A stretch of 55,879 nucleotides of DNA from Candidatus Atribacteria bacterium (GTDB lineage Bacteria; Atribacterota; Phoenicimicrobiia; Phoenicimicrobiales; Stramentimicrobiaceae): NCBI GenBank assembly GCA_029556475.1, contig JAKQEP010000081.1, forward strand, positions 67,130-123,008, in the 5' to 3' direction. This document shows positions 5,864-55,325 of the stretch, one piece after another. The notes beneath the pieces are model-generated. The model saw only the letters and a list, made by a program, of their open reading frames with translations. It searched no databases and had not been told where the DNA came from. Positions within the stretch are counted from its first letter, which is position 1, and each line of letters starts with the position of its first letter. The translations under genes and the position numbers were made by a program.

Positions 5864-6023
5864 TTATTAAAAATATTGTAATTGTTTGGTAGTAATATAA
5901 GTTTTTGGTTTATGGTTTTTAGTTAATAACTTGTTTATTATGAATACGTTCTTCTAAGAAGATGAGTAATGCCTCAAGAAAGGAAAGAAAATAAATATAA
6001 ATAAAAGAAAATTATAAAAAATA

Positions 6024-36108: not shown

Positions 36109-37410
36109 TTAATGTATCATTAAACGAGGTAAAAATGTTACTATTGTTGGAAAAAAATATAATATCACAATATCGATTAACATTATTATAACGAAGGGTA
36201 AACACGCTCGTGCAACAAACCAGAGATCCTCATTTGTTATTCCCATAAGTATAAATAAATTGAAACCTAAAGGAGGAGTAATATTTGATATACAAATTAA
36301 GATAATCACAAAAATCCCAAACCATAAAGAATCGAACCCATAAAGTTTTATTATAGGTAGTACAATTGGACAAGTCATAACAATTATTGAAATTCCATCT
36401 ATGAAACAACCCAATATAACATATACTAACATGAGGATTAAAATCAAAACAAATGGAGTTAAATCAAGGCTTGCAATATAATTACTTAAACGATATGGAA
36501 TTGCTAAATATCCTAAAGCCACAGAAAGATAACTTGCTCCACAAATGATTAAAAGTATCATTGAAGATGTCTTGATAGTATTTTTCAATGCCTTAATAAA
36601 TTCATTAACAGTGATTCCTTTAGATAATAGTGCAAAAACCAATGAAACTGCTACTCCTACTGCAGCAGCTTCAGAAGGAGTAGCCCATCCTAAATATATA
36701 CTACCTAATATACTTAGAATTAAGAAAGATACAGGAAATATTTGTACAAAGGATGATAAATAATCAATAAATCTAATTTTTTCAATAAAAGTAGGGGTCA
36801 AATGTGGATTAAAAATTGAAATCATAATAATATAAATACTAAAAGTCAATGCAATGAGCAATCCAGGGAAAATTCCTCCTATAAATAATTGCCCTATGCT
36901 TTCGTTTGCTATAACGCCATATACTACCATCGTTAAGCTAGGTGGAATCAAAATACCTAAAGTCCCCGCAGATGCCACACTACCTATTGATAATTTTTTA
37001 TCATATTTTCTAGCTTCCAATTCTGGTATAGTAATTTTCCCTACCGTTGCAGCTGTAGCAGAAGTTGAACCAGTAATAGCAGCAAATATAGTACAAGCAA
37101 TAATATTAATATGAATAAGGCCTCCTGGAATAAGCCTCATCCAAGGGAAAAGTCCTTTAAATAAGTTTTTAGAAAGGTTGCTTCGAATCAATATTTCTCC
37201 CATAAAAATAAATAATGGTACTGCCATTAATGAGGCACTATTCAGGCTATTCCATGTAACAGTGGCCAGAAGTTTTCCTACAGGCATATTGGTAAAAAAT
37301 AAAAGGGAAAATAATCCTGTAAGATACAATCCTATACCAATCCACAGACTAGACCCAAGAAATATTATTATTAAAAAAATAATTGTTAAACTTTCTATTA
37401 TCAGTTCCAT
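36109..37410 (-). CDS. dctM: TRAP transporter large permease DctM
   Basis: 433 aa with about twelve hydrophobic segments. Typical DctM features: SLMAVPLFIFMGEIL, ITGSTSATAATVGKITIPELEARKYDKKLS, GILIPPSLTMVVYGVIANESIGQLFIGGIFPGLLIA and the terminal TPPLGFNLFILMGI. It is the Na+-driven permease of a tripartite importer for organic acids, amino acids or similar solutes. AGGAG precedes the ATG; it lies 59 nt after dctQ. Confidence 0.93.
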   Translation of the reverse strand: MELIIESLTIIFLIIIFLGSSLWIGIGLYLTGLFSLLFFTNMPVGKLLATVTWNSLNSASLMAVPLFIFMGEILIRSNLSKNLFKGLFPWMRLIPGGLIHINIIACTIFAAITGSTSATAATVGKITIPELEARKYDKKLSIGSVASAGTLGILIPPSLTMVVYGVIANESIGQLFIGGIFPGLLIALTFSIYIIMISIFNPHLTPTFIEKIRFIDYLSSFVQIFPVSFLILSILGSIYLGWATPSEAAAVGVAVSLVFALLSKGITVNEFIKALKNTIKTSSMILLIICGASYLSVALGYLAIPYRLSNYIASLDLTPFVLILILMLVYVILGCFIDGISIIVMTCPIVLPIIKLYGFDSLWFGIFVIILICISNITPPLGFNLFILMGITNEDLWFVARACLPFVIIMLIDIVILYFFPTIVTFLPRLMIH

Positions 37411-37469
37411 ATAAAGCTCCTGTTATTTATAAATAAATCAAATTTATAAAAGGTTATAATTATATAAAC

Positions 37470-37955
37470 TTAAATTTTTTCATAAAAATCATTATAAATT
37501 TTCTCTAAAAACTGAAATGCCATTATCAAGAATCCAAGGGGAATGAAAAATTGCGGAATGGCTATATAAGTCTTTGATACACCCATGGAACGAACTTTGC
37601 CAAGAACTGATCTCCAAAAAAGATTATAAGTAACACTAGTAAGATAAATGCAAAATATTAAACCAACAAAATCAATAATTTTATTTAAAATTAATTTATA
37701 CTTTTCAGGTAAAAATTCATACAAAGCAGTCATTTTTATATGGCTCCCGTCTCTTAAAGTGATTGCCATACCCATCATAACAATACCACATAAAAAATAA
37801 CCTGTAAATTCATCAGTAAAATACAATGAAGAATTAAAAAAACGTCTTAAAATAATTTCAACTAAAATCATGATTGTTGTTAAACAAAGCATAATTGCTC
37901 CTAAGTAAAAACAAAAATTAGTTATTCTATTAATACATTTTATTAATGTTTTCAT
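37470..37955 (-). CDS. dctQ: TRAP transporter small permease DctQ
   Basis: 161 aa with four membrane helices and the DctQ signature region VEIILRRFFNSSLYFTDEFTGYFLCG. It supports the large permease. It lies between dctP and dctM in the usual order. AGAAGG stands upstream of the ATG. Confidence 0.92.
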   Translation of the reverse strand: MKTLIKCINRITNFCFYLGAIMLCLTTIMILVEIILRRFFNSSLYFTDEFTGYFLCGIVMMGMAITLRDGSHIKMTALYEFLPEKYKLILNKIIDFVGLIFCIYLTSVTYNLFWRSVLGKVRSMGVSKTYIAIPQFFIPLGFLIMAFQFLEKIYNDFYEKI

Positions 37956-38042
37956 CGACTAAAACCTTCTTTCCACTAAAAATTGGCAGTGAGTTACATT
38001 TTAAAAAATATACCTCACTGCCAACTACATTTCACCTAATTT

Positions 38043-39038
38043 TTACATTTCACTAAGCGCTTCTTTTGCTTTCTCATAAATTTCTCGAGCTTCAACAGGT
38101 GCATTATCAAGCCATTCTTGTCTAACACTTTCAGTTATCGCAATTACTTCCTTCTCAAATTTTTCAGAAATAGGAATAATCTTAACTCCATTTTTCAAAA
38201 TTAGCTTTTTGTTTTCTTCTTCTTCGTCTCCACCTGCAATCCATACTTCATCTTCAATTTCTTTAGAAATTTCGACCATGAATACTTTCAATTCTTCACT
38301 TAGGCTATTAAACTCATCCAGATTAACAGTTACCATTTCAGTAGCCAGCATAAACATAATGGGTTGAAAATAATTCATTACTTCCCATAATTTTCCTTCA
38401 GCTCCAGTCGTAGCAGAAGTCAAAACAGCATCAAGCATTCCAGTTGCAACCGAAGTATAGACATCACTCCATGGAATAGCATAAGGAATTCCTCCTGCTG
38501 CTTTAATAACATCAGCACTGATTTTGTCATAAGTACGTATTTTTAAATTTTTCATATCTTCGACAGAAGTTATTTCTTTTTTAGACCATAAGCCATCTAG
38601 CCATGGGCCCATCCAAAGTATTTTTTGATTCCATTTTTCAGCGGCTTTATCAAAATAAGGTCTACAGATATTGGTAAATATTCTTCCTTTTTCCAAATTT
38701 GGTCCCATCATAGGAAGTGAATTTACTCCAAATATAATCTCTTGTCCCGCAACCGTCATATTAGTGATTGCACTCATTTGCACTAAATTATCTCCAACTG
38801 TTTGCAAAAGTTCAGGTCCTTTGTAACCAAGTGCTCCACTATATTGAACTATAATCTCCAATTCACCATTTGTTTTTTCATATACCATATCTGCAAATTT
38901 TTTAAGTGCTATACTATGATAGTTAGTGGGTGACCACTGGCTATTTGCATTCCAAGTTTCTTTTCCAAATATTGTTGAAATAAATAAAATATTTAACAAA
39001 AAGATAGAAATTAACAAAACTGTAATAAATTTTTTCAT
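38043..39038 (-). CDS. dctP: TRAP solute-binding protein DctP
   Basis: 331 aa. Signal peptide FITVLLISIFLLNILFISTIFG. Family signatures: NYHSIALKKFADMVYEKTNGELEI, LKIRTYDKISADVIKAAGG (with the ligand-binding Arg) and PWSDVYTSVATGMLDAVLT. It is the periplasmic receptor for the TRAP importer. The ligand is probably a carboxylate or amino acid. The AGAGG site supports the start. Copy B of the leader repeat lies about 200 nt upstream. Confidence 0.92.
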   Translation of the reverse strand: MKKFITVLLISIFLLNILFISTIFGKETWNANSQWSPTNYHSIALKKFADMVYEKTNGELEIIVQYSGALGYKGPELLQTVGDNLVQMSAITNMTVAGQEIIFGVNSLPMMGPNLEKGRIFTNICRPYFDKAAEKWNQKILWMGPWLDGLWSKKEITSVEDMKNLKIRTYDKISADVIKAAGGIPYAIPWSDVYTSVATGMLDAVLTSATTGAEGKLWEVMNYFQPIMFMLATEMVTVNLDEFNSLSEELKVFMVEISKEIEDEVWIAGGDEEEENKKLILKNGVKIIPISEKFEKEVIAITESVRQEWLDNAPVEAREIYEKAKEALSEM

Positions 39039-41018: not shown

Positions 41019-41465
41019 TCATTTCACAGTATCTTCCTGTCCAGAACTAATAATAATTTGATCTTCTATTCTAATATTAAGCTCTTTCCCAGTAGATATT
41101 TTAGGGGAATAAAGAATAATATTTTGATGGTTGGGAATATGGGTGTCATCAAAACCAGCCACAGTCCCCAATAGATTATTTTTCCAGTAGACTTCATCGC
41201 CCATTACCATAACCCCACCTGTTTTGATTTCTACAAAAGCAATATAAGCAATCCTGTTAACAATGGCTCCTGGTCCAGTTTTTTCCTGGTCAGTGAAGAT
41301 AAGCTCGTGTATATCATTCTTTTTCAAAACCCTGGATATTTGTGGTATTAAATGAAGAGATCTATTATCCAACCTTGCCTGTAATACAGCTACTACTGAA
41401 CATTCTATATTTCTTTTTGTGCTAAAAGGGTTCTCCTTAAACAGACCACCGGTATAAGGGTCCAT
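41019..41465 (-). CDS. 148-aa conserved-looking protein, unknown function
   Basis: 148 aa, no signal peptide or membrane segment. The first half contains SVVAVLQARLDNRSLHLIPQ; the second half is rich in beta-forming and Gly-turn stretches (GGVMVMGDEVYWKNNLLG, then VAGFDDTHIPNHQNII). AAAAGGA precedes the ATG. It may belong to a small DUF family, but I cannot name it with certainty. Its place between ridA and the PLP enzyme suggests a partner or accessory role for that enzyme. Confidence 0.6.
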   Translation of the reverse strand: MDPYTGGLFKENPFSTKRNIECSVVAVLQARLDNRSLHLIPQISRVLKKNDIHELIFTDQEKTGPGAIVNRIAYIAFVEIKTGGVMVMGDEVYWKNNLLGTVAGFDDTHIPNHQNIILYSPKISTGKELNIRIEDQIIISSGQEDTVK

Positions 41466-41550
41466 TTTTTCACATCCTTTTACACCATAACAATTTTTTA
41501 TTAGACAGTATTAAATTAAAAATAATACCTTCAAATCCATTAGCATTTAG

Positions 41551-41940
41551 CTAGCAGCTAGCAATAGCTTCCATTTCAACTTTAGCTCCTTTTGGTAAAT
41601 TGGAAACCTCTACACAAGCACGTGCTGGCAAACTGGAGTTAAAGTATTCTGAATAAACCGCATTAATGCTATCAAAATCTTTCATATCAGTAATAAAGAT
41701 AGTTACTTTCAATACCTTCTGTAGTGAACTTCCGGCACTTTCCAAAATTGCTTTGATATTTTCAATTACCTGTTTTGTTTGGCTATCAATATTACCGTTA
41801 ACAAACTCATTTGTTGAGGGGTTAATTGCAATCTGTCCAGAAACAAAAATCAGGTTACCATATTTAATCGCCTGAGAATAAGGGCCGATTGCGGAGGGAG
41901 CAGTCATAGTTTTGATAATCTTTCTGTCTATGGTAAACAC
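41551..41940 (-). CDS. ridA: RidA family 2-iminopropanoate deaminase
   Basis: 129 aa from a GTG at 41940. RidA hydrolyses reactive enamine/imine products of PLP enzymes such as 2-aminoacrylate. Family features: APSAIGPYSQAIKYGNLIFVSGQ, IENIKAILESAGSS and PARACVEVSNLPKGAKVEMEAIA (active-site Arg in PARACVE). It lies directly after the regulator and before the PLP enzyme, so it probably handles that enzyme's products. Confidence 0.93.
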   Translation of the reverse strand: MFTIDRKIIKTMTAPSAIGPYSQAIKYGNLIFVSGQIAINPSTNEFVNGNIDSQTKQVIENIKAILESAGSSLQKVLKVTIFITDMKDFDSINAVYSEYFNSSLPARACVEVSNLPKGAKVEMEAIASC

Positions 41941-41957
41941 AACCTTTCTTATTTAGA

Positions 41958-42641
41958 TTAAAGTATTATTTTTCCACTACCATTTTCAGGCTTTATTTCA
42001 GCAAGGTAATTGTAGATTGTAAAACGGGAAACATTCAATTTTTCTGCCAACCGGTCAATTGCGTCTTTCACCAAAAAAATTCCATGTTTTTGCAAGAACC
42101 GAACCATTTCTATTTTGTCTTCTTTTTGCATTTTAGTTATGTCTTTGCCGATTCTCTGCTGAGCCTTAGAAAACAACTGTTCCATCAATTCATCCAGGGA
42201 ATGGGAGAATGATTCTTCTCTTTCTTCTTTAATAATATTCTCAGCATTATTCAAATTGTTTTCAATATTACAAAATTCGTCTATCTCTTTAGCTATATTT
42301 ACAATTGATTCTAAATTAAAATTAATGCATAAGAAGCCAACAATTTTCTTAATGTTATCACGAATAAAAATTGTGGTAGATTTTAATCTCTTTCCATCTT
42401 TACTTTCTGTTTTATAATTAGCCACATAATTAATGTCATTGAAGATATCAGAGGTTAGAAAATATAATCCAAGGTCAGTCATTGGACCCCCAACTTTTCG
42501 GCCTGTTACATGTCCATTTTCAATTAATACAATAGAATGTTCAAGATCTTGGACATCATGAAGTATAACCTCACAATTTTTTCCAAAAGCACGAGCTATG
42601 CCTTTTGCTACGGGGATAAAATCTTTTAAAAGGGGGTTCAT
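41958..42641 (-). CDS. YheO/DauR-type PAS-HTH transcriptional regulator
   Basis: 227 aa. The N-terminal YheO-type PAS domain (about 5-115): FIPVAKGIARAFGKNCEVILHD and GRKVGGPMTDLGLYFL. The C-terminal helix-turn-helix (about 175-220): LQKHGIFLVKDAIDRLAEKLNVSRFTIYNYL. DauR controls D-arginine use in Pseudomonas, and relatives often sit beside D-amino-acid genes. It is the first gene of the ridA-PLP-TRAP unit and follows its own strong promoter and a 16-bp inverted repeat, so autoregulation and control of the unit are likely. Confidence 0.85.
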   Translation of the reverse strand: MNPLLKDFIPVAKGIARAFGKNCEVILHDVQDLEHSIVLIENGHVTGRKVGGPMTDLGLYFLTSDIFNDINYVANYKTESKDGKRLKSTTIFIRDNIKKIVGFLCINFNLESIVNIAKEIDEFCNIENNLNNAENIIKEEREESFSHSLDELMEQLFSKAQQRIGKDITKMQKEDKIEMVRFLQKHGIFLVKDAIDRLAEKLNVSRFTIYNYLAEIKPENGSGKIIL

Positions 42642-43212: not shown

Positions 43213-43908
43213 TCAGAAAGCACATGCTTGATCCATCCCTCTAAATACAATAAAGGGGGGGTTAACTACCACTAATACTATATCATTCTTAGAAATATTT
43301 TCTTCAGAATAACTAACAGTGATAGTTGCGGGTATGGAAATGATATTTGTAATTCCTGTGACTGTTCCATTATTATCAACCGTGGCTATATCTTGATGAT
43401 CTGATTCGTAACTGCAATTGGCAAGTTCTATTTCTTTGCTAGTATTATTATCATAATAAGCAGTAACTGATTGAATGGGTTTTGATTCATTCATATCAAG
43501 ATACATTACAGTAGAAGGAAGAACCTTTATAGAAGTAAGCAACGCTTTTTCAACTACAATTGTAAACTCTTGAGTAGCAGATATTGATTTCTTTATGTCA
43601 CTTGCTTTTACGATAACATCATAGCTCCCAGGAGATTCGGGAACCCAATTAATCAGGCCGGTGGATAATTCAATGTTCATACCTTCAGGATAAATCAATA
43701 AATAATACTCTAAAACATCATTATCAATACAACTAGCCTTTGCCTTATAAGTGTAGGGCATCCCCTCTTTACCCTTTATATTTGGATTAGATGTAAATAC
43801 AGGTATATCATTTGAAACACTTTCTGTTGCTGTAAGTGTAAAAGTAGCTAGCAGCATAGATAAAAGAACTGTTGTATAAAAATAAAATAGTATTCGTGTT
43901 ATTTTCAT
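43213..43908 (-). CDS. secreted protein with Ig-like (He-PIG and Big-2 type) domains
   Basis: 231 aa from the ATG at 43908, which has AAAGGAG about 7 nt upstream; the track's earlier start at 43974 has no RBS. Signal peptide: ILFYFYTTVLLSMLLATFTL. A putative-Ig domain follows with PEGMNIELSTGLINWVPESP and GSYDVIVKAS. A bacterial Ig-like region then ends with DNNGTVTGI and VTVSYSEEN. No enzyme domain or wall anchor is seen. It is probably a small surface or periplasmic binding protein; the short C-terminus (PPFIVFRGMDQACAF) may be a truncated end. Confidence 0.7.
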   Translation of the reverse strand: MKITRILFYFYTTVLLSMLLATFTLTATESVSNDIPVFTSNPNIKGKEGMPYTYKAKASCIDNDVLEYYLLIYPEGMNIELSTGLINWVPESPGSYDVIVKASDIKKSISATQEFTIVVEKALLTSIKVLPSTVMYLDMNESKPIQSVTAYYDNNTSKEIELANCSYESDHQDIATVDNNGTVTGITNIISIPATITVSYSEENISKNDIVLVVVNPPFIVFRGMDQACAF

Positions 43909-44547
43909 AAAAATCTCCTTTTTTTCTATATTTGTTGTACAATTATACAAAAAATTTTTTATGATTTTAATCAAAAAATATTTAATGGAAATGTATTAAG
44001 TTTTAAAATATGTCTTAGCTTAAGAAATAGTACTTATTGGAATTCCATTATTTAACAAATCTTTACATATAAAGAAAGATATAGGGTAAATATTATAATG
44101 CCCTGGTATTTTGTATTTAAATAAATTTTCAACTGGTAAACTAATCTTTACTTTACAGTCAATTATTGAAAGGAATCTGTTATGCTTATAAATTATAATG
44201 TTTATTCAAATATAAGTAGAATAATAGTCTTTTATTAAATGATTAGTAATAAAGTCTAAAAATTGTCAATTAATTCTTCACTGGCTTGCATTCTAAAATA
44301 AAAAAATGGGGCAGATACTAACAATTGGTCTACCCCTTCCTATGAATTCTACAATTTATGTTTTAAATAAATATTATTTCAGCCTGTAAAATTTACAAAT
44401 GGCTAACTGTTTATGACACTAAAATATAATAATAACCACTAACTCATAATATTTATTGAAAGAAGGTAAAGTAAGTGACATATTCTTAAAAAATATTATT
44501 TTTTAAACTGTTTTGATTTTCTTAAATTTTCTTAAATGTTTCTAAAA
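43909..44547. other. intergenic region
   Basis: About 640 bp without a supported gene. It has the terminator of the downstream M14-like gene at 44308-44336 and presumably the promoter of the Ig-like gene. No RNA gene is recognised. Confidence 0.5.
44308..44336 (-). terminator. rho-independent terminator after the M14-like gene
   Basis: Read on the minus strand: GGGGTAGA, 13-nt loop, TCTGCCCC (one T-G wobble), then ATTTTTTTATTTT. It lies 212 nt beyond the stop codon of the gene at 44548 and is the only good terminator for it. Confidence 0.8.
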
Positions 44548-45684
44548 TCAACCTCTCGGTTTTAATAAGAAATAACCGACACCTTTTTCAATTATTTCAG
44601 CATATCTTGGTGCATCAGAAACAATAATTTCTTTATCAGGATATAATTCAGAAAAAGCACTTATTATTTCTAAAACCGTAGAGGTATGTCTACCGGTACG
44701 TACATCAATGTGTGAACCTGTTTCGTCAAATGGAACATAGAGTAATCCAAGTTTTGCCGCTTTTAAAATAAATTCGTCTTTACCGGTAATAATTAAAGCT
44801 TCATCTGTTCGACCTCTTAATGGATCCTGAATTGGGTCGCAGGTTTCAGCCAGCAATGATAATGCCCTTGAATGATCTCCAACCTCTCTATGGGTAAGTC
44901 CATGTAAATTCTCAGGAGATATTTCTTTCCCTATTTTTATTCCTTCAAAAGCACTCAAATTCATCTCTGCGATAACTGCTATATCCATTGCTTTTTGATT
45001 TGCCACTATAGTATTAATAACAGGATACATTGGCTCTGCCTCGTGAAGATCTATAAATAAATCTACATTTTCTTTTTCAATAACCTGCATAATTGCATGC
45101 CCAACTTTTTCGGTTATAGTTCCATCAGCTTTTCCTGGAAAAGTACGATTAAGGTTCCTGATATCAAAACCAGAAAGTGATTGTCCGCTGGGATAATGTA
45201 CATATACTTCAGGGTCAGGCCATTGATGAATAGGGTTAGTATAGCGGTCTCCAAACCTAAACCATCTGCTTCCCCAATCTGTTTTTATGTGGTAGCGCAT
45301 CGGATAGGCTTCTCCAGGGTGACCGGCAGTAAAAGCGCTATTATTGGCAAATGGAATAAGAATGACTTTCCCTTTTTCAACGTGAGCATTTTCTATTAAT
45401 ATAACATTTGTCATTACCCCTGAAAGTTCATTAGTATGAACCCCCGCTGTAACCATAACAGCTCCCCCATCTTCTTCCCCTTCTAATATATATATATTAG
45501 TATCAAGAGCTGTTCCTTTTAAATCAGCAAAGTAATCACTTAACTTTGCTACTCTGGTAACCCCAGGGCCCTCTACTATTGGTTCTTTTTCGTTTAACCA
45601 TATTAAAAACTCTCTTCCTGCAATTACCATCATAATGACAGACAGCAGAATGATAAGAGTTTTTCTTAACCACTTATTTGACAT
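44548..45684 (-). CDS. membrane-anchored M14/AstE-like zinc hydrolase
   Basis: 378 aa of the succinylglutamate desuccinylase/aspartoacylase group. One N-terminal helix (TLIILLSVIMMVIAGREFLIWL) anchors it. The zinc site appears as TAGVHTNELSG (His83 and Glu86) and FIDLHEAEP (second His). ILIPFANNSAFTAGHP and NLNRTFPG follow the family pattern. Relatives remove acyl or amide groups from N-acyl amino acids or cut peptides. It is followed by a small membrane protein and a DctM-like permease on the same strand, so its product may be imported. AAAGGGGG precedes the ATG. Confidence 0.82.
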   Translation of the reverse strand: MSNKWLRKTLIILLSVIMMVIAGREFLIWLNEKEPIVEGPGVTRVAKLSDYFADLKGTALDTNIYILEGEEDGGAVMVTAGVHTNELSGVMTNVILIENAHVEKGKVILIPFANNSAFTAGHPGEAYPMRYHIKTDWGSRWFRFGDRYTNPIHQWPDPEVYVHYPSGQSLSGFDIRNLNRTFPGKADGTITEKVGHAIMQVIEKENVDLFIDLHEAEPMYPVINTIVANQKAMDIAVIAEMNLSAFEGIKIGKEISPENLHGLTHREVGDHSRALSLLAETCDPIQDPLRGRTDEALIITGKDEFILKAAKLGLLYVPFDETGSHIDVRTGRHTSTVLEIISAFSELYPDKEIIVSDAPRYAEIIEKGVGYFLLKPRG

Positions 45685-45734
45685 ACTTAGCCCCCTTTCT
45701 TATATAAATTGAATTCATTTCTACCTCTAATTAT

Positions 45735-45881
45735 TTAATATATTCGTAAAATTCTAAGTATGAATGGCATTAATACAAAAGCATAAAGAATTTCATTATA
45801 CAGATTCTCTTCTTCAACAAAATTCCATAATAGTAAAATAGCTACAAAAGCACAAAACAGGTAATAAATAAGAGTAACCAT
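45735..45881 (-). CDS. 48-aa membrane microprotein
   Basis: Not in the ORF track. The protein begins MVTLIYYLFCAFVAILLLWN and ends ILYAFVLMPFILRILRIY. Two hydrophobic helices flank an acidic turn (FVEEENLYNE), the shape of a small transporter accessory subunit. AAAGGAG stands 9 nt before the ATG. It lies between the DctM-like permease and the M14-like hydrolase on the same strand. The permease has no DctQ-like partner nearby, so this may be a reduced small subunit; that is inference. Confidence 0.7.
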   Translation of the reverse strand: MVTLIYYLFCAFVAILLLWNFVEEENLYNEILYAFVLMPFILRILRIY

Positions 45882-46053
45882 TATTCATTTTCTCCTTTAC
45901 CATAATATACTCATTGAATATTCAGGAGCATTAACTTAAAATATTTTACAATTTTGTGTACTAGAAATTATCAATAATATCCTTTAATTAATTATATCCC
46001 TTTATTGCACTGGTTAAATTCTGGTTAGGCAACTTGTTTGTGTTAATCAGTTA

Positions 46054-47349
46054 TTAAATCAATAAAAATTTAAAAGAATTAGCAAAAATAACCAGACAAA
46101 TACCGGCAATTGTTATAACTATCCAGGGAACGGAACACGCTTTCAAAAAATTGTTGTAAGAATCTTTGTATCCTACTGTTTCGACTGTAAGTCTTCCAAT
46201 AATTCTTGTCGGAGGAAGAGCATCACCAAGAGGACAAATCAAGATAATTCCTACAGTAGCCAGTATTGGATTTAATCCCAACGAGTTAAACAAAAATATT
46301 AAAGGAACTCCCAGTACAGCGGCAATACCATAAAGGAGAATTGCTTCACCAACCGGCAGTACAACAGCCAGTCCAATATACACTAACCAAATTGGGAGTG
46401 AAAGTACTGTTATTACCAGCAAACCGCGTACTCCAGTTAAAGTAAGTATCTGGACAAATATTCCTACCGCAACGAGTGTTCCAATCAACGGGAAAAGTTG
46501 TTTTACGGTACGTTTTGAGATTAAAAGAATATTTACTTTTTGTCCGCTTAGCCAGACTGTTATCAAGGCAACAACCGAACTGATGATAAATATAAGGGGA
46601 ATTCCAAGTATTGGAAAGGCATGTGGTAGAAGTCTGGTCGCTACCATTAGAATTGCCAGAACAATAAAAGGAAGATAAACTTTAAAGCCAGTCATTTGAG
46701 CTGGAACTGGTGGTAATTTATCAATAATTGCATTTAATTCAAGGGGCTCCCCTTTCCAGCCAAGATAGATTACTGTGAATATTGCAAGAATAAGTGTAGG
46801 GATTAGGATTGGCATGAAAAATCCTATATATGGCATATTGACTCCACCACATATAATCATTGCATAAATGTTTACAGGAGGAGCCACAACGCTAAGAGCA
46901 GCTCCCAGAAATACTATTGCAGTAACATTTACCATAGGAATTCCCATGGAATGTAAAACCATAGCAACTATACCGCCAGAAATAAGGACTGAGGCACTCC
47001 CTGCACCGGTTAAGGCACCGGGTAATAATAAAACTAACATTAATAATATTAAAAGGACCAATCTTTGTTTGTAGAATTTAGTCACAACAGTTTTTACTAT
47101 AAATGATATTGCTTTGCTTTCCTCAAGAATATTCATAAATATCGTTGCTGTAACAATTGTTAAAATAATATCAAGATAGGCAAAAGAGCCTTCAACAATG
47201 TGTCTTATCGGTATGCCAAACCCTGCAACCAGAGCACCTGCAAAAGCACTTATTATCATTGACAATTCAGGAGACATTTTCAATAGCTGTAATGCTAAAA
47301 TATAGACTACAACAATAACTCCTAAAATTATACTCGTTTGTAAAAACAC
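46054..47349 (-). CDS. DctM-like large permease
   Basis: 431 aa with about twelve helices, GTG start with AAGGAGG. Features shared with TRAP large permeases: a repeat GALTGAGSASVLISGGIVAMVLHSMGIP, VVAPPVNIYAMIICGGVN and the mirror-half GLNPILATVGIILICPLGDALPPTRIIG. It may instead belong to a related ion-transporter (IT) family. No DctP or DctQ is adjacent; the 48-aa protein is the only small membrane partner. Substrate unknown; neighbours suggest peptides, amino acids or an organic acid. Confidence 0.8.
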   Translation of the reverse strand: MFLQTSIILGVIVVVYILALQLLKMSPELSMIISAFAGALVAGFGIPIRHIVEGSFAYLDIILTIVTATIFMNILEESKAISFIVKTVVTKFYKQRLVLLILLMLVLLLPGALTGAGSASVLISGGIVAMVLHSMGIPMVNVTAIVFLGAALSVVAPPVNIYAMIICGGVNMPYIGFFMPILIPTLILAIFTVIYLGWKGEPLELNAIIDKLPPVPAQMTGFKVYLPFIVLAILMVATRLLPHAFPILGIPLIFIISSVVALITVWLSGQKVNILLISKRTVKQLFPLIGTLVAVGIFVQILTLTGVRGLLVITVLSLPIWLVYIGLAVVLPVGEAILLYGIAAVLGVPLIFLFNSLGLNPILATVGIILICPLGDALPPTRIIGRLTVETVGYKDSYNNFLKACSVPWIVITIAGICLVIFANSFKFLLI

Positions 47350-47428
47350 TTTATCGCCTCCTTACAATGAAATATTTTATAACATATTTATAATATTTAA
47401 AATAATTTATAGCTTTTTATTATCATTC

Positions 47429-47458
47429 AGAGTGAACCCTTTTTAAAGGGTTCACTCT
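47429..47458 (-). terminator. 14-bp perfect hairpin between C69 gene and permease
   Basis: AGAGTGAACCCTTT and its exact complement with a 2-nt centre. It lies 49 nt beyond the stop of the C69 gene at 47507 and 80 nt before the permease start. A U-run is weak on both strands, so it may stabilise an RNA end or give partial termination between the two genes. Confidence 0.65.
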
Positions 47459-47506
47459 TTCAATTTTAAATGCCTTTTAGTTAATGCTTACAGAATAAAG
47501 TAATTA

Positions 47507-49132
47507 TTATTTGCCTAAGTTTTCCGCATCCCAAGCTTTAACTGCTTCCACCCACCATTCAGGATAAGCAGGTGTTGGTTCACCTAAAATTCCGCCATCC
47601 ATGTATTTGGTGACGAGATGATCAGCAAATTTCCACCATTCTTTTACAGTTTTATCGCCAGTCTGAACAACATAATTGGTTAAGTATTGTCTGGCTAAAT
47701 CTGGATTATCTTTGTATATTTCCAAGGCAGTTGCTTCAACATATGGCTGCAGAGCAAACATTTCTCCCATAAGCTCAGCTCGTTTTTCTCTTATATCTTT
47801 TATCATGTAGCTGAATTTTAGATTTGCCCAGTTGGAAATGAAGTTACTGGCCCAGTACATGCTGTTTCTGTCAACATCTACTCTGGTCTGGTTTAACCAG
47901 GAATCTGGGACCTGAGTAACACCACAATATAGTGGCATCTGGATACTGGTTGCTGTCTTATCATATCCAAACCACATCAGACCGCCAATATGTGGTGGCA
48001 TCCAGTTTCTGGCAATTGTAACTAAATTGTAAGTACAAGATTGACTAGAGAATGGGGTACTAAAGAATAATCCTCTCTGATATCTTTCAGGCATTCCCCA
48101 AGGACCTCCACCCAAGCTTTTAGTTAAGTCGTATTCTTCATATTCAATGCCTTCCCAGAAGTCTTTCTGTATCTCCATAATCTCTTCTAATGTTAACTTG
48201 CCTTTATCGGGCTTAACAGAGAATGGCCATCTTTCACGAGTAAGGAATTCTTCCTTATCCTTTATCATAGATGGAGCCATTAATTGGATGAAGCGGTTTT
48301 CTCTTGGGTTGACACCTCTTGATACAGTGTATGCTTCCCAGACACGGAAAGGTTCGCCAGAGTCAGGATCCCAGTATCCCAAATCTTCAGCCAGCGAATA
48401 GATGTTTGAAGAAGCCATGAAAAATTCCTTGTTGTCAAGGTCAATTTCATCAATTCTTCCACGATTCACGTTAAATGATACTTCATCATCTGGTACTCTC
48501 TGGGCTACCCAGACTGCTCCTGGTCTGCCACAATCATAGTACCAGTCTGCACCACCGCCATATATTTCAAACCACCATGCTTCATTTGGGTCAGTTACGG
48601 ACCATGCTTCTGCACCATAAGTTGCAGCATAACCGTATTCTTCTGCAAGTGCACCAGCTACCTGTATTGCTTCTCTGGCTGTTTTGGCTCTCTGTAAAGC
48701 AAAAACCATCAGCTGGTCTGTATCCATTATTCCGTTAGGATTCGCTAATTCTGGTTTCTGGAAAATAAGCTCGTCGCTGATAAATACAGAATGTTCATTC
48801 ATAAAGGGGAAACCAGAGTGGAAATAGGTGTAAGTCTCTTCAACCTGCGGTATCTCTCCTGCTAGGACTATTTCTCTTGGTGGGATACTGGTATTGGCGA
48901 ACCTATACAGATAAACAGGTGCCATTGTGCCAGGCTCATGTTTTGCACCAGGTACAATTACGATATTGGGGTCACACCAGCCTTGTTGTTCTCCGGTGTT
49001 AATGACAGCCCCTAAGGTATTGGCGTCTTTTCCGTAATTGATATTGGTACAACAAATAGCATTCATACTAATCATGACCAGAAATACAAGCATTAAACTT
49101 GCGGGAATCAAGATTCTAAATCTACTTTTCAT
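47507..49132 (-). CDS. secreted C69-family dipeptidase, copy 1
   Basis: 541 aa, N-terminal-nucleophile fold of the PepD/C69 (U34) family. Signal peptide ILIPASLMLVFLVMISMNA, then ICCTNINYGKDANTLGAV, where Cys28 would become the catalytic N-terminus after cleavage. Family stretches MDTDQLMVFALQRAKTAREA and AWSVTDPNEAWWFEIYGGG are intact. It cuts dipeptides, probably outside the cytoplasm. AAGGAGG precedes the ATG. It is a tandem paralogue of the next gene, with exactly the same length. Confidence 0.9.
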   Translation of the reverse strand: MKSRFRILIPASLMLVFLVMISMNAICCTNINYGKDANTLGAVINTGEQQGWCDPNIVIVPGAKHEPGTMAPVYLYRFANTSIPPREIVLAGEIPQVEETYTYFHSGFPFMNEHSVFISDELIFQKPELANPNGIMDTDQLMVFALQRAKTAREAIQVAGALAEEYGYAATYGAEAWSVTDPNEAWWFEIYGGGADWYYDCGRPGAVWVAQRVPDDEVSFNVNRGRIDEIDLDNKEFFMASSNIYSLAEDLGYWDPDSGEPFRVWEAYTVSRGVNPRENRFIQLMAPSMIKDKEEFLTRERWPFSVKPDKGKLTLEEIMEIQKDFWEGIEYEEYDLTKSLGGGPWGMPERYQRGLFFSTPFSSQSCTYNLVTIARNWMPPHIGGLMWFGYDKTATSIQMPLYCGVTQVPDSWLNQTRVDVDRNSMYWASNFISNWANLKFSYMIKDIREKRAELMGEMFALQPYVEATALEIYKDNPDLARQYLTNYVVQTGDKTVKEWWKFADHLVTKYMDGGILGEPTPAYPEWWVEAVKAWDAENLGK

Positions 49133-49271
49133 AAAATCCTCCTTATTTTCAATTTACTCTAGACCTTTAAAACATACCATTCAGAGCTCTTTCAACAATC
49201 TTTGTCTTAATCTAATGTCTATCAACAATCTTTTAATCTTCTCTTTTTAAAACCCCTCCTTTCTTTATAAT

Positions 49272-49314
49272 GTGAGGGTGAACTTTTTTCAAAACCCACC
49301 CCCACTTTTTATTT
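49272..49314 (+). terminator. hairpin plus U-tract on the plus strand between the C69 genes
   Basis: GTGAGGGTG and CACCCCCAC (one A-C mismatch on the plus strand), followed by TTTTTATTTT. No plus-strand gene lies upstream, so it would stop antisense RNA. On the minus strand the stem is perfect with a wobble but has no U-tail. Confidence 0.35.
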
Positions 49315-49319
49315 TAGAT

Positions 49320-49374
49320 AATAATATTGCTGAATTTAAATTTGCTATCTTAAATAATAACCAGCAATATTATT
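49320..49374. repeat. 13-bp inverted repeat between the C69 genes
   Basis: AATAATATTGCTG at 49320-49332 and its exact complement at 49362-49374, with a 29-nt AT-rich centre. No U-tail fits, so it is either an operator for copy 1 or an RNA fold in its leader. Confidence 0.5.
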
Positions 49375-49381
49375 TAAATCA

Positions 49382-49407
49382 AAATAAGGACTTACTACTC
49401 CTTATTT
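49382..49407 (-). terminator. weak terminator over the stop codon of C69 copy 2
   Basis: AAATAAGGA, 8-nt loop, TCCTTATTT on the minus strand, then TGATTT. The TAA stop of the gene lies within the left arm. The stem is AT-rich and the U-tail short, so termination is probably partial. Confidence 0.45.
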
Positions 49408-51027
49408 ATCTTTAAAGAATTCTTCCACATATTTGTCTCTAAATTCTTTTTCTAAATCCCACCAATATTCGGGGTAATCTAACCAGGGTCCGCCCACTAT
49501 GCCGCCATCAACATACTTAGCTAATAATTCATCACCGAATTCTCTCCAGTAGTCTACTACTCTGTTAGCTGTATCAACTGAATATCTTGTAAGGAAACGA
49601 ATTGCAAGTTCTGGATCCTGCTCATACAGTTTTACTGCAGCTTCTTCAATTGCTGGTTGTAAATCAAACATATCTTTCATCAGGTATTCTCTGGCTGCTT
49701 TTATGTCTTCAATCATATACCTATGACAGAGATTTGCCCAATTACTTACAAATGTAAATGGCCAGTAAGCGCTTTCTCTCTGATAATAATGCCGTGTCTG
49801 GTTATTAAATGATTTTGGCAGTTCTGTAATTCCACAATAAAGAGGCATTTGTACACTGGTATGAGGTTTATCAAATCCAAACCACATCAAACCACCAATG
49901 GGATCGGGTAACCAGTTTCTGGCTTGTGTAATGAGGTGGTATGAGGCTGAGGGTTGTGAGAGCTTCCAGGGTAGTACGAAATTCCAAATTCTATCAGGGC
50001 TTCCCCATGGACCAGCAAGAGGCCCTACTGTTGGGTCAAGATGAGTCCCTTCAAGATAATTTTTCTGAAATTCCATTAAATCATGTACGGAGAGTTTCTT
50101 GTCAGGTTTAACTGAGAAAGGCCATCTTTCCTGATTTGGGTCAGGATTTAAAGAAGGTGCCACCAGACTCATTAAGGTCCATTCTCTGACATTGGGTCCA
50201 GTACCTTCAGGTCCGTATGCGGCAAATACTTCATACCAGACAAAAGGTTCACCTGGTTCCCAAAAGCCCATATCTTCAGCCAGGGTGTATATATTGGAGG
50301 AACCCATGAAATAATCTGTATCATCAAGGTCTATTTCAGCAATTCTGCTTCGGTTTTCATTGAAAGCAACATGATCATCGGGAACCCTCTGGGCAACCCA
50401 CACTGCTCCAGGTCTGCCACATCCGGGATACCAGTCTGCTCCACCACCAAAGACTTCAAACCACCATGCTTCATTGGGGTCAGTTACTGACCAGGATTCC
50501 GGTCCACCATAATTGGCAGAATAGCCGTATTCTTCAGCTAAAGCTCCTGCTACTTGAATAGCTTCTCTTGCTGTTTTGCCTCTCTGTAAAGCAAATACCA
50601 TCAGCTGGTCTGAATCCATAATACCATTTGGATTTACCAGTTCAGGTTTTCCATCTGGCAGGTACTCATCACTTATAAAGACCTGGTGTTCATTCATGAA
50701 CGGGAATCCAGCATGGAAATAGGCATATGTTTCCTCAACTTGAGGAATTTCTCCAACTTTTATAACCGGAACAGATTCGGGTGCACCATCCTGATACAAA
50801 TTTAAATAGACTGGTGCCATGGTGCCGGGTTCATGTTTCTGTCTTGGAACGATTACAATATTCGGATTACATGCCCCTTCTTGTGATCCCATATTCATTA
50901 CAGAACCGTCAACAGAGGCATCTTTTCCGACACTCATATTAGTACAGCTAAAAGTAGTTAAGTTTGCGAAGATCAGTATCAGTGCCATTAAGCTAACTGA
51001 TATTAAAATTCTATACTTAGATTTCAT
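49402..51027 (-). CDS. secreted C69-family dipeptidase, copy 2
   Basis: 541 aa, clearly related to copy 1 over the full length. Signal peptide ILISVSLMALILIFANLTTFS, then the predicted nucleophile Cys28 in CTNMSVGKDASVDGSVMN. MDSDQLMVFALQRGKTAREA and ESWSVTDPNEAWWFEVFGGG match copy 1. The two differ mainly in the middle (about 260-370), where substrate specificity may differ. AGGAG precedes the ATG. The leader contains GGGAGGTGAT about 85 nt upstream. Confidence 0.9.
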   Translation of the reverse strand: MKSKYRILISVSLMALILIFANLTTFSCTNMSVGKDASVDGSVMNMGSQEGACNPNIVIVPRQKHEPGTMAPVYLNLYQDGAPESVPVIKVGEIPQVEETYAYFHAGFPFMNEHQVFISDEYLPDGKPELVNPNGIMDSDQLMVFALQRGKTAREAIQVAGALAEEYGYSANYGGPESWSVTDPNEAWWFEVFGGGADWYPGCGRPGAVWVAQRVPDDHVAFNENRSRIAEIDLDDTDYFMGSSNIYTLAEDMGFWEPGEPFVWYEVFAAYGPEGTGPNVREWTLMSLVAPSLNPDPNQERWPFSVKPDKKLSVHDLMEFQKNYLEGTHLDPTVGPLAGPWGSPDRIWNFVLPWKLSQPSASYHLITQARNWLPDPIGGLMWFGFDKPHTSVQMPLYCGITELPKSFNNQTRHYYQRESAYWPFTFVSNWANLCHRYMIEDIKAAREYLMKDMFDLQPAIEEAAVKLYEQDPELAIRFLTRYSVDTANRVVDYWREFGDELLAKYVDGGIVGGPWLDYPEYWWDLEKEFRDKYVEEFFKDK

Positions 51028-51700
51028 GAAATTCTCCTATTTTTTGATAATTTTCTTTTATTAGCTTACTATTTTTTACTTAAGTTGTAGAACTGATTAC
51101 CTTTTATAATCACCTCCCATCCTTTTAATTGTTAGTTACCCTGGATCAGTTAGATTTTTATGAACGGTACATTGTAACTACTATATCTAGTTAATCTATC
51201 ACCATGAATTATTAATAGTACTATCAAATAAAGATGAGCTAAATTAAATATTATCCAAATTAAAAGTAATTTCTTCTATAATCTAAAGTATAATCTCCCT
51301 TCCATGTTAGTTTCTATTTTCACAAAAAGATGTTTTACAATCTTGATTCCGAGACTGAATATATATCTCACAATAGGTTTGATTTGGGAAACTCTTCTTT
51401 GGTAAATCTTTGTTCGTTATCATTAAAGTAATTAATAATTTTTGCAATGTGCTCTCTATTCTAGAAGATATCTGGCTTATCCCTTACAATCAATCTGTCT
51501 GTATGAAAAAGTTAGATGGTGCTTATTTATATGATCTTTCATCCGGAAAAGCCAGAGATGAGTATATTTTTATTCAGTTCACTCATTCCTGTTTATTAAT
51601 TCCTAAAGTTAAAAAAGAATAATTTTTTAAAATTTCAGCTACTTAAAATAGTATCCCATGCTACTTATAGTTTGGACTGTTTTAAAACTTACTCTATTTT
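51028..51700. other. intergenic region before C69 copy 2
   Basis: About 670 bp. No supported gene. A 70-codon plus-strand ORF (51410-51622) contains MKKLDGAYLYDLSSGKARDE, which looks protein-like, but it has no clear RBS or family. On the minus strand a mini-ORF, MGGDYKR, surrounds GGGAGGTGAT near 51110. The promoter of copy 2 must be here. Confidence 0.4.
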
Positions 51701-52324
51701 TTAACCTTCATCTTTTAAAAATATTTCCTTAAGTATTTCATTTAACTCTATACTTTCATCAAATATTCTTAAAGGAATGTTGTTTTTCTTCGCTATTTCA
51801 TCAAATCTTCCATCCAGGTTGCCATCACTTCTAACGACTAAATAGTCTACTCTCGGGCCGACTAAATCAATAGACTGTTCGCAGGCACCACTTCTTCTCG
51901 CTTCACCTTCTATATGAAATCCCAAAATTAGCATATTCTGTTTTCTGGCTTCTTCGATAAGCTTTTCAATTCTTGCTAATTCATCATTTATCTCTATTCC
52001 AGCTGCACCCATTCCTTTACCACTGGTGCCCATTGTAACGATTAAAGTCTTATATTCTTTTGCTTTTAAATCTTCTACTGTTGCCAAGTTTAGATAGTCA
52101 TTGTCTATCTTGTTGCGCCTGCATATTACACTGATTGAGATTGCGCCAGGGCTCTGCCCAGCAGTAGTAATAATTATTGGCAACCCACCTTTAGGCAGAG
52201 GTACAGTTTCATCAGCCCCAACAGCGTTGCTCAAAGTGAGAAGAGCCAAAATTACAAATAGCAGAATGGTACATAAATAAGCAACAACCTTCATCTTTTT
52301 GTTTAAAAAATGGTTAATAAACAT
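51701..52324 (-). CDS. secreted protein of unknown function (DUF6305-like)
   Basis: 207 aa. N-terminal membrane/signal helix VVAYLCTILLFVILALLTLSNAVGA. Then a Rossmann-like pattern: GGLPIIITTAGQSPGAISIS, KTLIVTMGTSGKGMGAAGIE, NMLILGFHIEGEARRSG and DYLVVRSDGNLDG. It resembles a small exported alpha/beta family that I associate with DUF6305, without certainty. AAGGAG stands 7 nt before the ATG. Its position among peptide-use genes suggests a periplasmic role in the same process. Confidence 0.65.
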   Translation of the reverse strand: MFINHFLNKKMKVVAYLCTILLFVILALLTLSNAVGADETVPLPKGGLPIIITTAGQSPGAISISVICRRNKIDNDYLNLATVEDLKAKEYKTLIVTMGTSGKGMGAAGIEINDELARIEKLIEEARKQNMLILGFHIEGEARRSGACEQSIDLVGPRVDYLVVRSDGNLDGRFDEIAKKNNIPLRIFDESIELNEILKEIFLKDEG

Positions 52325-52490
52325 TGTTGTACTCCTTTTATTAATTTTATTTATTCAAACATATTGTTAAAGTATTGTCATAATTTTGATAAAGAAAATC
52401 AAAAATGATTTTTTATCAGCATTTTTCTTTACCCTAACCAATCAGATTACATTTTCCAAAAGGTCATGTTTTGTTTTACACAAATATGTT

Positions 52491-53975
52491 TTATCCTTCT
52501 TTAAAATACCTTTCTGTGATGATCTTATCTTCAGTAAAGAAATTAATAATGGCCTTACCCTGTGCTTTGATATCAGCAAATTGAGATTCTTTCATTCCAC
52601 CAAAAGGTAAATAAGCAACGGGGGCAGGAATTCCAATATTAATTCCTATCATACCGGCTTCCACTTCTAATTTAAATTTTCTGGCATAGTAACCATTCTG
52701 GGTATATATAGAAGAGCCATTACCATATTTATGGTCATTGATAATTTGAATAGCCTCATCCAGATTATCTGCTTTCATAATACAAACCACCGGGCCAAAT
52801 ATTTCTACATCATGAATCTTCATTTTAGGCTTTACATCAGTAAATACGGTGGGACCAATAAAATATCCTTTTTCACAACCTGGTACAACAACACCTCTTC
52901 CGTCTAAGGCAAGGGTAGCACCCTCTTTTATTCCCTCTTCAATCATATGCAGAATAAAATCCTTAGCTTTTTTAGATATGACTGGGCCCATTACCAGAGT
53001 TTCATTTATGAATTTGGGGTCAAGGGGGTCTGCAACAATAATATTTTTCGAATCTTCGATAAAGCGCTCACACAGGGTTTCATACATATCTGCTACACCA
53101 ATAATAACTGAAGAAGCCATACATCTCTGACCGGCACAGCCATAACAAGAAGTGGTAGCATTCCTGATTACCTGATCTAATTTAGCATCTGGCATTACTA
53201 CTAAGTGATTCTTAGCACTACCCATAGCCTGGAACCGTTTATTTACTCTGGCACAATTTTCAGCAATTATTTTACAGGTATTTGAAGAGCCAACTATTGA
53301 TATGCCTTTAATTTGGGGGTGATCCATAAAAGCTTCCGCTACTGTTTTGTCTCCATTAACCAGGGTAAACACACCTGGAGGAAGGCCAATCTGGTCGATA
53401 TATTCTGTAATCAGTTGCATAGTCATAGGAACCTGTTTTGAAGCTTTTATAAGGAAAGTATTACCGGTAGCCAGTGCATAAGGTAAAAACCAAAAGGGGA
53501 CCATTGCTGGAAAATTAAATGGAGCAATCATAGCAAATACGCCTAAAGGCAATCTTAAAACTTCTCCATCTATATCAAAGGAAGTTCCAATGATTTTATC
53601 TCCCTGTTGAAGGACGGGCATACCGGTTGCTACTTCAATATTTTCATAGACGCGTTTAAATTCTGCAATAGAATCTGTATAAGATTTACCCATCTCAGCA
53701 ACAAGTACACGGGCAAGTTTATCTTCATTTGCTCTTAAAAGTTCATTTAATTCAAAAAGGTATCTGACTCTTCGGGCTACCGGGGTATTACTCCAACCAG
53801 GAAAAGCCTTTACAGCAGACTCAATAGCATAGTTAGTTGCCTCTCTGGTAGAAAGGGGAACTTTGGCCAGTATTTCACCAGTTGCTGGATTTTCTACATC
53901 TATATAGCCACGATTTTCGGGATCTACCCATTTTCCATTGATGTAATTTTTCATAATTTTAATATTAGTATTCAT
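52491..53975 (-). CDS. mmsA: CoA-acylating (methyl)malonate-semialdehyde dehydrogenase
   Basis: 494 aa, aldehyde dehydrogenase superfamily. Catalytic Cys in CYGCAGQRCMASS (about 286), typical for MmsA; FNFPAMVPFWFLPYALATGN and the terminal YLPFGGMKESQFADI also fit. MmsA converts methylmalonate or malonate semialdehyde with CoA and NAD+ to propionyl- or acetyl-CoA plus CO2. Residues elsewhere favour MmsA over succinate-semialdehyde enzymes, which use water. It lies 66 nt after the aminotransferase on the same strand, so the two form a pair that turns an omega-amino acid into an acyl-CoA. Confidence 0.9.
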   Translation of the reverse strand: MNTNIKIMKNYINGKWVDPENRGYIDVENPATGEILAKVPLSTREATNYAIESAVKAFPGWSNTPVARRVRYLFELNELLRANEDKLARVLVAEMGKSYTDSIAEFKRVYENIEVATGMPVLQQGDKIIGTSFDIDGEVLRLPLGVFAMIAPFNFPAMVPFWFLPYALATGNTFLIKASKQVPMTMQLITEYIDQIGLPPGVFTLVNGDKTVAEAFMDHPQIKGISIVGSSNTCKIIAENCARVNKRFQAMGSAKNHLVVMPDAKLDQVIRNATTSCYGCAGQRCMASSVIIGVADMYETLCERFIEDSKNIIVADPLDPKFINETLVMGPVISKKAKDFILHMIEEGIKEGATLALDGRGVVVPGCEKGYFIGPTVFTDVKPKMKIHDVEIFGPVVCIMKADNLDEAIQIINDHKYGNGSSIYTQNGYYARKFKLEVEAGMIGINIGIPAPVAYLPFGGMKESQFADIKAQGKAIINFFTEDKIITERYFKEG

Positions 53976-54041
53976 TATATTTATTGTTCCTTTCGCTTTA
54001 TTGTTGTTTATTATAAGAATCTATTATAAAAAATAATTTAA

Positions 54042-55325
54042 TTACTCTTCAAGCTTTGAAAAGGCATCATCCAATATATCAATGACTTTGTCTAATTGCC
54101 GTTCTTCTATAACCAAAGGCGGTTGAATTCTCAGTACATTTCCAAGAACTCCTCCTACACCAATGAGTAGGCCTTTTTCTCTGCATAAATTCCTGACTTT
54201 GCCTGCTTCTGCACTAGCAGGAGTTTTTTCTTTATCTTTAATTAACTCTACTCCGATCATCAAGCCTTTCCCTCTCACATCACCAATCAAGTCATATTTT
54301 TTCATAAGCTTATCTTTAACATTCTGCATAAAACGGTTCCCTTTTTCTAATGCCTTTTCAGGGATTTTCTCATCAACCAGAAAATCAATATTTGCTATAG
54401 CAGCTGCACAGGATACCGGGTTTCCCCCAAAGGTTGATAAGTGGTCACCGGGTTTGAAAGAGCTAGCTATTTCATCTCTGGTAATAAAAGCACCCAATGG
54501 GAATCCATCAGCAATTCCTTTTGCCATTGTCATTATATCAGGTTCTACACCATAGTGTTCAATGGCAAATAGTTTTCCAGTTCTTCCAAAACCTGATTGA
54601 ACCTCATCTGTGATTAACAGAATATTGAATTCATCTAAGACCTTTTTAATTTCCTTAAAGTAATCTTCAGGAGGAACGATTATTCCACCTTCACCCATGA
54701 CAGGTTCTGCAATAAAGGCAGCAACTGAACCACTGGTTTGAAAATCAATAACATCTCTTAAATATCTGGCACATTTTAAATTGCAGCTCTCTCTTTTCAA
54801 TTCAAAGGGGCAACGGTAACAATATGGGGCAGGAGCAAAAGCGATTCCCGGTAAGAATGGTCCACCTTTGAATTTTCTTTTTCTGTTTCCAGTAACACTG
54901 AGGGTGGCATTTGTTCTACCATGGAAAGAACATTGGAGAGCTATAATTTCATAATTTCCAGTGAATTGTTTGGCAACTCTTAAAGCCCCTTCTATAGCTT
55001 CAGCACCACTATTAGAGAAGAATGTTTTATCAAGTTTGCCAGGGGTAATTTGAGCTAATTTTTCTGCCAGTATTGCGGGCGGTTCAGAATAGTAGACATA
55101 TGCACAGCAATGAACCAACTTATCCATCTGATCTTTAGCAGCCTGAATAACTTTTGGGTTCCTGTGCCCGGCATTGTTAACAGCAATGCCAGCAAAACAA
55201 TCGATGTACTCTTTTCCATCTGTAGCGTATACTGTAGATCCTTCAGCATGGTCAATGACTACATCTTCCATCTTGTTGATAAAGTACAGGTTGACATACT
55301 TGTCATACTTTTGCTTAATGTCCAT
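54042..55325 (-). CDS. class III omega-aminotransferase (GABA/beta-alanine type)
   Basis: 427 aa. PLP lysine in TMAKGIADGFPLGAF, with LLITDEVQSGFGRTG, FFSNSGAEAIEGALRVAK and FHGRTNATLSVTG typical of class III. The CYRCPFELKRESCNLKCARY insert (four Cys) is unusual for GabT, and recalls some archaeal and Firmicutes omega-aminotransferases. The partner MmsA-type dehydrogenase suggests beta-alanine, 3-aminoisobutyrate or GABA as the amino donor. The upstream SD is not ideal, but the start fits the family length. Confidence 0.85.
   Translation of the reverse strand: MDIKQKYDKYVNLYFINKMEDVVIDHAEGSTVYATDGKEYIDCFAGIAVNNAGHRNPKVIQAAKDQMDKLVHCCAYVYYSEPPAILAEKLAQITPGKLDKTFFSNSGAEAIEGALRVAKQFTGNYEIIALQCSFHGRTNATLSVTGNRKRKFKGGPFLPGIAFAPAPYCYRCPFELKRESCNLKCARYLRDVIDFQTSGSVAAFIAEPVMGEGGIIVPPEDYFKEIKKVLDEFNILLITDEVQSGFGRTGKLFAIEHYGVEPDIMTMAKGIADGFPLGAFITRDEIASSFKPGDHLSTFGGNPVSCAAAIANIDFLVDEKIPEKALEKGNRFMQNVKDKLMKKYDLIGDVRGKGLMIGVELIKDKEKTPASAEAGKVRNLCREKGLLIGVGGVLGNVLRIQPPLVIEERQLDKVIDILDDAFSKLEE

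What the first reader, a model, noticed from the sequence alone, without database searches (positions are those of the whole stretch)
45735..45881. 48-aa two-helix microprotein missed by the ORF track
A good RBS, hydrophobic-acidic-hydrophobic layout and a place between an exported hydrolase and a DctM-like permease that lacks DctQ make it a candidate minimal transporter subunit.
Basis: partly seen in the sequence, partly recalled or inferred. Interest (0 to 1): 0.5.

Follow-up and report, generated by a model that had tools for sequence, protein, structure and literature searches.

The report
Conserved two-helix partner of a permease
A tiny, mostly unannotated 48-residue membrane protein is a real gene that, across many bacterial phyla, always sits between one particular TRAP-like permease and a membrane-anchored hydrolase, often beside poly-gamma-glutamate genes, and is probably a stripped-down helper subunit of that permease.

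Summary
The ORF is real (minus strand, 45881->45735, 48 aa, ATG, AAAGGAG RBS) and strongly conserved. A paralogous copy lies in the same genome. Homologues occur at 78 of 78 testable loci in named genomes of about ten phyla, always in the order permease-microprotein-AstE-like hydrolase. Permease and microprotein occur in exactly the same 20 of 134 whole genomes searched, never one alone. Y7, P40, L43 and R44 are identical in 92/92 distinct sequences (one later exception has V for P); median dN/dS is about 0.14.

The 'acidic' loop is not a family trait: elsewhere it is mostly basic. The permease is a TRAP DctM/IT-fold protein, with no DctQ or DctP beside it in any of 80 loci. The microprotein shows no detectable DctQ homology. 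AlphaFold2 on a natural permease+microprotein frame gives pLDDT 91 and pTM 0.90; adding the hydrolase drops pTM to 0.60. Best reading: an obligate two-helix permease subunit, inferred to act as a mini-stator. New context: the cassette often lies beside pgsB-pgsC-pgsW and exported gamma-glutamyltransferase, C69 dipeptidase and DUF6305 genes, suggesting gamma-glutamyl polymer or peptide recycling. RefSeq lists one homologue as 'hypothetical protein'.

The parts
45735..45881 (-). 48-aa two-helix microprotein (the finding); obligate neighbour of the permease
45892..45898 (-). Ribosome-binding site AAAGGAG, 10 nt before the ATG of the microprotein
   Evidence: sequence read
46054..47349 (-). DctM-like permease, 431 aa (IT/DctM fold; orthologues above the Pfam DctM cut-off, the window copy itself below it)
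44548..45684 (-). AstE/AspA-family zinc hydrolase, 378 aa, with an N-terminal membrane anchor (catalytic domain outside, inferred from a basic N-terminus and a single TM helix)
47507..49132 (-). Exported C69-family peptidase a, same operon direction
49402..51027 (-). Exported C69-family peptidase b
51701..52324 (-). Exported DUF6305 protein, the commonest extra neighbour of the cassette (56 of 78 loci)

Best explanation
The ORF is a translated, purifying-selected two-helix inner-membrane microprotein. It is an obligate small subunit of the neighbouring DctM-like, Na+- or H+-driven elevator permease. Its long first helix and short second helix are proposed to pack against the scaffold side of the permease and enlarge the stator, the job DctQ does in TRAP transporters, so that the permease can work as a monomer and without a DctP binding protein. 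The substrate would be amino acids or short gamma-glutamyl/acyl-amino-acid products released outside the membrane by the anchored AstE-like hydrolase and the exported GGT or C69 peptidases of the same operon. SHOWN: existence, conservation, fixed gene order, one-to-one occurrence with the permease, permease fold, absence of DctQ/DctP at the locus, linkage to pgsB/pgsC/pgsW and exported peptidases. INFERRED: physical complex (from an AF2 model without interface scores), stator function, transport direction and substrate.
For: One-to-one occurrence and adjacency: 11/50, 3/4 and 6/80 genomes, the same ones for permease and microprotein. 78/78 named loci have permease-micro-AstE. A broken permease copy with 15 stops has no microprotein. 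Translational-coupling-like overlaps in some genomes. Invariant Y7, P40, L43, R44 and C-terminal K in 98% of those with a residue there; dN/dS about 0.14. AF2 of the natural L060 frame: mean pLDDT 90.8, pTM 0.90, microprotein helices pLDDT 92-96. With AstE added, pTM falls to 0.60 although each domain is confident, so the hydrolase is not docked. Foldseek best hits IseQM, SiaQM, VcINDY. No DctQ/DctP in 80 loci. Literature: the Q subunit serves as extra scaffold for a monomeric elevator (PMC9971032, PMC9352664).
Against: No experiment and no interface score or coordinates; pTM is dominated by the permease. No sequence homology to DctQ. The hydrolase is as constant a neighbour as the permease, so the tie could be to it. 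Coevolution could not discriminate (Neff about 25). Positive charges on both the loop and the C-terminus leave the topology undecided.
Confidence: 0.6

Rival explanations
1. The microprotein is an anchor, chaperone or processing partner of the membrane-anchored AstE-like hydrolase rather than a permease subunit.
For: It is always immediately upstream of that gene, often with overlapping or near-overlapping start and stop codons.
Against: The AF2 triple gives no confident placement of AstE relative to the rest (pTM 0.60), whereas permease+microprotein gives 0.90. AstE already has its own TM anchor. Second AstE copies occur with no extra microprotein seen (L188, L192; Clostridium loci).
Confidence: 0.15
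2. It is a functional analogue of CapE/PgsE, the 47/55-aa small subunit of the Bacillus poly-gamma-glutamate synthase, and assists synthesis or export of the polymer.
For: Similar size, and pgsB/pgsC/pgsW lie within the fetched flanks in 29 of 41 loci with long flanks; gene order in Cetobacterium somerae. CapE/PgsE sizes and roles: PMC5751247, PMC9045300.
Against: Cassettes outnumber pgsB (15 permeases versus one pgsB in most genomes; G006 has three cassettes and one pgsB), and in the window genome pgsBC is on another contig. No NCBIfam or Pfam small-protein hit.
Confidence: 0.12
3. It is a regulatory small membrane protein that modulates or stabilises the permease (as AcrZ or KdpF do for their partners; from general knowledge) without being a stator.
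For: Same partner evidence as the best explanation; the size is typical of such regulators.
Against: Occurrence is strictly one-to-one over about ten phyla with four invariant residues, more like a structural subunit; no DctQ is present to do the structural job.
Confidence: 0.1
4. Chance ORF or translation-coupling leader without a functional product.
For: Short ORF in an A+T-rich region.
Against: Conserved amino acids, dN/dS about 0.14, homologues across phyla.
Confidence: 0.02

Closest known systems
TRAP transporter small subunit DctQ/SiaQ (PF04290) with DctM/SiaM
   Same: Small membrane protein encoded next to a DctM-fold permease; the proposed role (extending the scaffold of an elevator) would be the same
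   Different: 48 aa and 2 helices instead of about 150 aa and 4; encoded downstream of the permease; no detectable homology; no DctP at the locus; permease only distantly DctM-like
CapE/PgsE of Bacillus poly-gamma-glutamate synthase
   Same: 47-55 aa protein; near pgsB/pgsC in part of the family
   Different: Fixed partner is a permease and a hydrolase, not PgsA/CapA; found without pgs genes at the locus; homology not testable here
RefSeq WP_023050537.1, 'hypothetical protein', Cetobacterium somerae
   Same: Same gene in the same position: ggt-DUF6305-TRAP large permease-[47 aa]-succinylglutamate desuccinylase-pgsB-pgsC-pgsW
   Different: Nothing; it is a homologue without function or family

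Membership tests
DctQ (PF04290) | Match to the Pfam DctQ model | tested here: not met
   No Pfam family at E<=1
DctQ (PF04290) | Profile-profile homology to DctQ sequences of relatives | tested here: not met
   hhalign probability 0.1%, E 0.77
DctQ (PF04290) | Four transmembrane helices, N-in C-in | tested here: not met
   Two helices only
DctQ (PF04290) | Encoded beside a DctM-fold permease | tested here: met
[quoted passage not shown]
   AF2 pTM 0.90 for the natural joined frame, but no coordinates or interface score
Complete TRAP transporter (DctPQM) | DctP binding protein in the same locus | tested here: not met
   No hit to the window's DctP in 80 loci
DctM / IT superfamily (the permease) | Sequence and fold match | tested here: met
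   Orthologues above the Pfam cut-off; Foldseek prob 1.00 to IseQM/SiaQM/VcINDY; the window copy alone is below the cut-off
PgsE/CapE | Sequence similarity to PgsE | not tested
   No reference sequence was fetched; no NCBIfam hit
PgsE/CapE | Located in the pgs operon | tested here: inconclusive
   True in about half of the loci, not in the window

The most novel reading that the evidence does not exclude
The permease and microprotein form a new class of TRAP-derived transporter that needs neither DctQ nor DctP: a two-helix microprotein is the smallest known stator, and substrate is handed over by membrane-anchored and exported hydrolases, the whole serving gamma-glutamyl polymer or peptide recycling in many phyla.
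Probability: 0.35. Interest if true: 0.75.

Novelty: new variant of a known kind. Interest (0 to 1): 0.6.

Why it matters
It gives a concrete partner and setting to a small protein that is unannotated or 'hypothetical' throughout about ten phyla, including cultured Fusobacteria, Clostridium and Treponema. It offers a direct test of the published idea that elevator transporters need a minimum stator size. It also links DUF6305, an AstE-like hydrolase and a DctM-like permease to poly-gamma-glutamate genes. No paper in the held library mentions DUF6305, and none found there describes this permease family.

Tried and rejected
DctQ remnant: hhalign of the microprotein (92 sequences) against DctQ (31) gave no signal. 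Residue coevolution microprotein-permease versus microprotein-AstE: Neff about 25, within-protein control equally flat, no conclusion. Sequence search of the microprotein in PDB: only weak hits to a human lysosomal protein, chance. Permease by sequence in PDB: none; the fold search succeeded. Natural gene fusions: none; large open frames in GC-rich loci are in other frames. Rfam: nothing in the operon. Idea that permease D60 pairs with microprotein R44, like SiaM D50 with SiaQ R47: dropped, since D60 is N in half of the family.

Full report
OBSERVATION. The ORF lies on the minus strand, 45881->45735, 48 codons, ATG, TAA, with AAAGGAG 10 nt upstream. All genes of the stretch 44548-55325 that I describe run in the same direction: aminotransferase, aldehyde dehydrogenase, DUF6305, C69 peptidase b, C69 peptidase a, permease, microprotein, AstE-like hydrolase.

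CONSERVATION. tblastn and profile searches find the protein in relatives at 29-72% identity. The host genome has a second cassette on contig C39 with permease (40%), microprotein (34%) and hydrolase (48%), this time with gamma-glutamyltransferase instead of C69 peptidases. The closest full relatives carry Candidatus Atribacteria titles, so the window is most likely from that phylum. A scan of 84,980 species genomes with the hydrolase alignment returned 80 named loci (Atribacteria, Aminicenantes/Acidobacteriota, Bacteroidota, Clostridia, Fusobacteria, Spirochaetes, Thermotogae, Halanaerobiales, Bipolaricaulota/Acetothermia, KSB1, a delta- and a betaproteobacterial bin). In 78 the DNA upstream of the hydrolase is held, and every one has permease-microprotein-hydrolase; the other two end at contig edges. 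These loci were ranked by similarity to the window hydrolase, so they are not a random sample.

An unbiased test used whole genomes, searching permease and microprotein separately: 11 of 50, 3 of 4 and 6 of 80 genomes had matches, identical sets for both queries, and never one alone. In the home phylum 15 intact permeases face 15 microproteins (one cut by a contig end); the single degraded permease, with 15 stops, has none. In the additional loci read outside the phylum the hydrolase follows too. Among 92 distinct microprotein sequences Y7, P40, L43 and R44 are identical in all, and the last residue is K in 88; dN/dS over 69 usable pairs has a median of 0.14. G138, read later, has V in place of the proline. 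The window's acidic loop is unusual: positions 24 and 26 are K/R in over 80%.

NEIGHBOURS. The permease orthologues score 36-52 bits on Pfam DctM (cut-off 23.8); the window copy scores 18, below it. The AF2 model matches TRAP M subunits (9pym E 4.6e-7; 7qha_B TM 0.60/0.69) and VcINDY-type transporters. The hydrolase belongs to the AstE/AspA zinc family with a basic N-terminus and one TM helix. DUF6305 is in 56 of 78 loci, C69 in 22, GGT in 15, pgsB in 38. Of 41 loci with long flanks 29 have at least one of pgsB, pgsC and pgsW (TIGR04012, TIGR04011, TIGR04332). Among the 25 nearest genomes permease and pgsB co-occur (9 both, 2 + 2 single, 12 neither; Fisher p 0.001), and the window genome has pgsB-pgsC on contig C7. 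In Cetobacterium somerae RefSeq shows kinase-regulator-ggt-DUF6305-TRAP large permease-47-aa hypothetical protein-succinylglutamate desuccinylase-pgsB-pgsC-pgsW. Fusobacterium nucleatum is reported in the cited literature as a polyglutamate producer (reference in PMC4497714).

STRUCTURE. In about a third of loci permease and microprotein share a frame, so reading the intervening stops as glycine gives one natural chain. This is a modelling device, not a claim of read-through. L060 (Atribacteria), 501 aa, 73 rows: mean pLDDT 90.8, pTM 0.90; the microprotein forms helices 445-476 and 480-497 at pLDDT 92-96, and the linker is below 50. My estimate: if the microprotein were unplaced, pTM would be about 0.83-0.84. 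The three-gene frame of L069 (912 aa) keeps confident domains but pTM 0.60, as expected if the hydrolase is tethered and not docked. No coordinates, PAE or ipTM were available, so this is support, not proof.

MECHANISM. In TRAP transporters the Q subunit extends the scaffold so that the M subunit can work as a monomeric elevator (PMC9971032, PMC9352664). The present permease has neither Q nor P beside it but always has the microprotein. I therefore propose a two-helix mini-stator (inferred). Exported GGT or C69 and the anchored AstE-like enzyme would release glutamate or short gamma-glutamyl or acyl products at the membrane surface for uptake. Import fits the exported hydrolases and the amino-acid-fermenting surroundings; export of polymer cannot be excluded.

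MEMBERSHIP AND NOVELTY. It is not a DctQ by sequence or helix number, but it may work like one. It resembles CapE/PgsE only in size and partial context. The gene is already predicted in RefSeq as a hypothetical protein, so the ORF as such is not new. What appears new is the family, its obligate permease partner and its setting. No paper in the held library mentions DUF6305 or, in its biological sense, pgsW, and none of those found describes this cassette.

Noticed in passing
window 47429-47458: Perfect 13-bp inverted repeat with a 4-nt loop (AGAGTGAACCC TTTTTAAA GGGTTCACTCT) between C69 peptidase a and the permease, inside the operon: possible attenuator or processing site.
   Followed up: no
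L024 (own genome contig C39, 5927-11032): Second cassette with gamma-glutamyltransferase upstream and a divergent DUF6305 gene downstream: two cassette types with different exported peptidases in one genome.
   Followed up: partly
L166 (own genome C7), 5672-7281: pgsB-pgsC pair without pgsW next to it, flanked by Suf-like genes and desulfoferrodoxin; not adjacent to either cassette.
   Followed up: partly
G001:C70:1544-2305: Degraded permease with 15 in-frame stops and no microprotein detected: natural decay of a cassette.
   Followed up: no
L186 2093-2242: Microprotein with V instead of the otherwise invariant proline (MVVFILRILQIR): a natural variant for testing that residue.
   Followed up: no
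window 36109-39038: A complete ordinary DctPQM TRAP set lies only about 7 kb from the Q-less permease, next to an M24 peptidase-like protein.
   Followed up: no
window 41019-42641: DUF6917, RidA-like and YheO-PAS/HTH regulator genes in a row, downstream of the cassette.
   Followed up: no
window 43213-43974: Putative exported protein with Ig-like domains (He_PIG, Big_2) next to the hydrolase.
   Followed up: no
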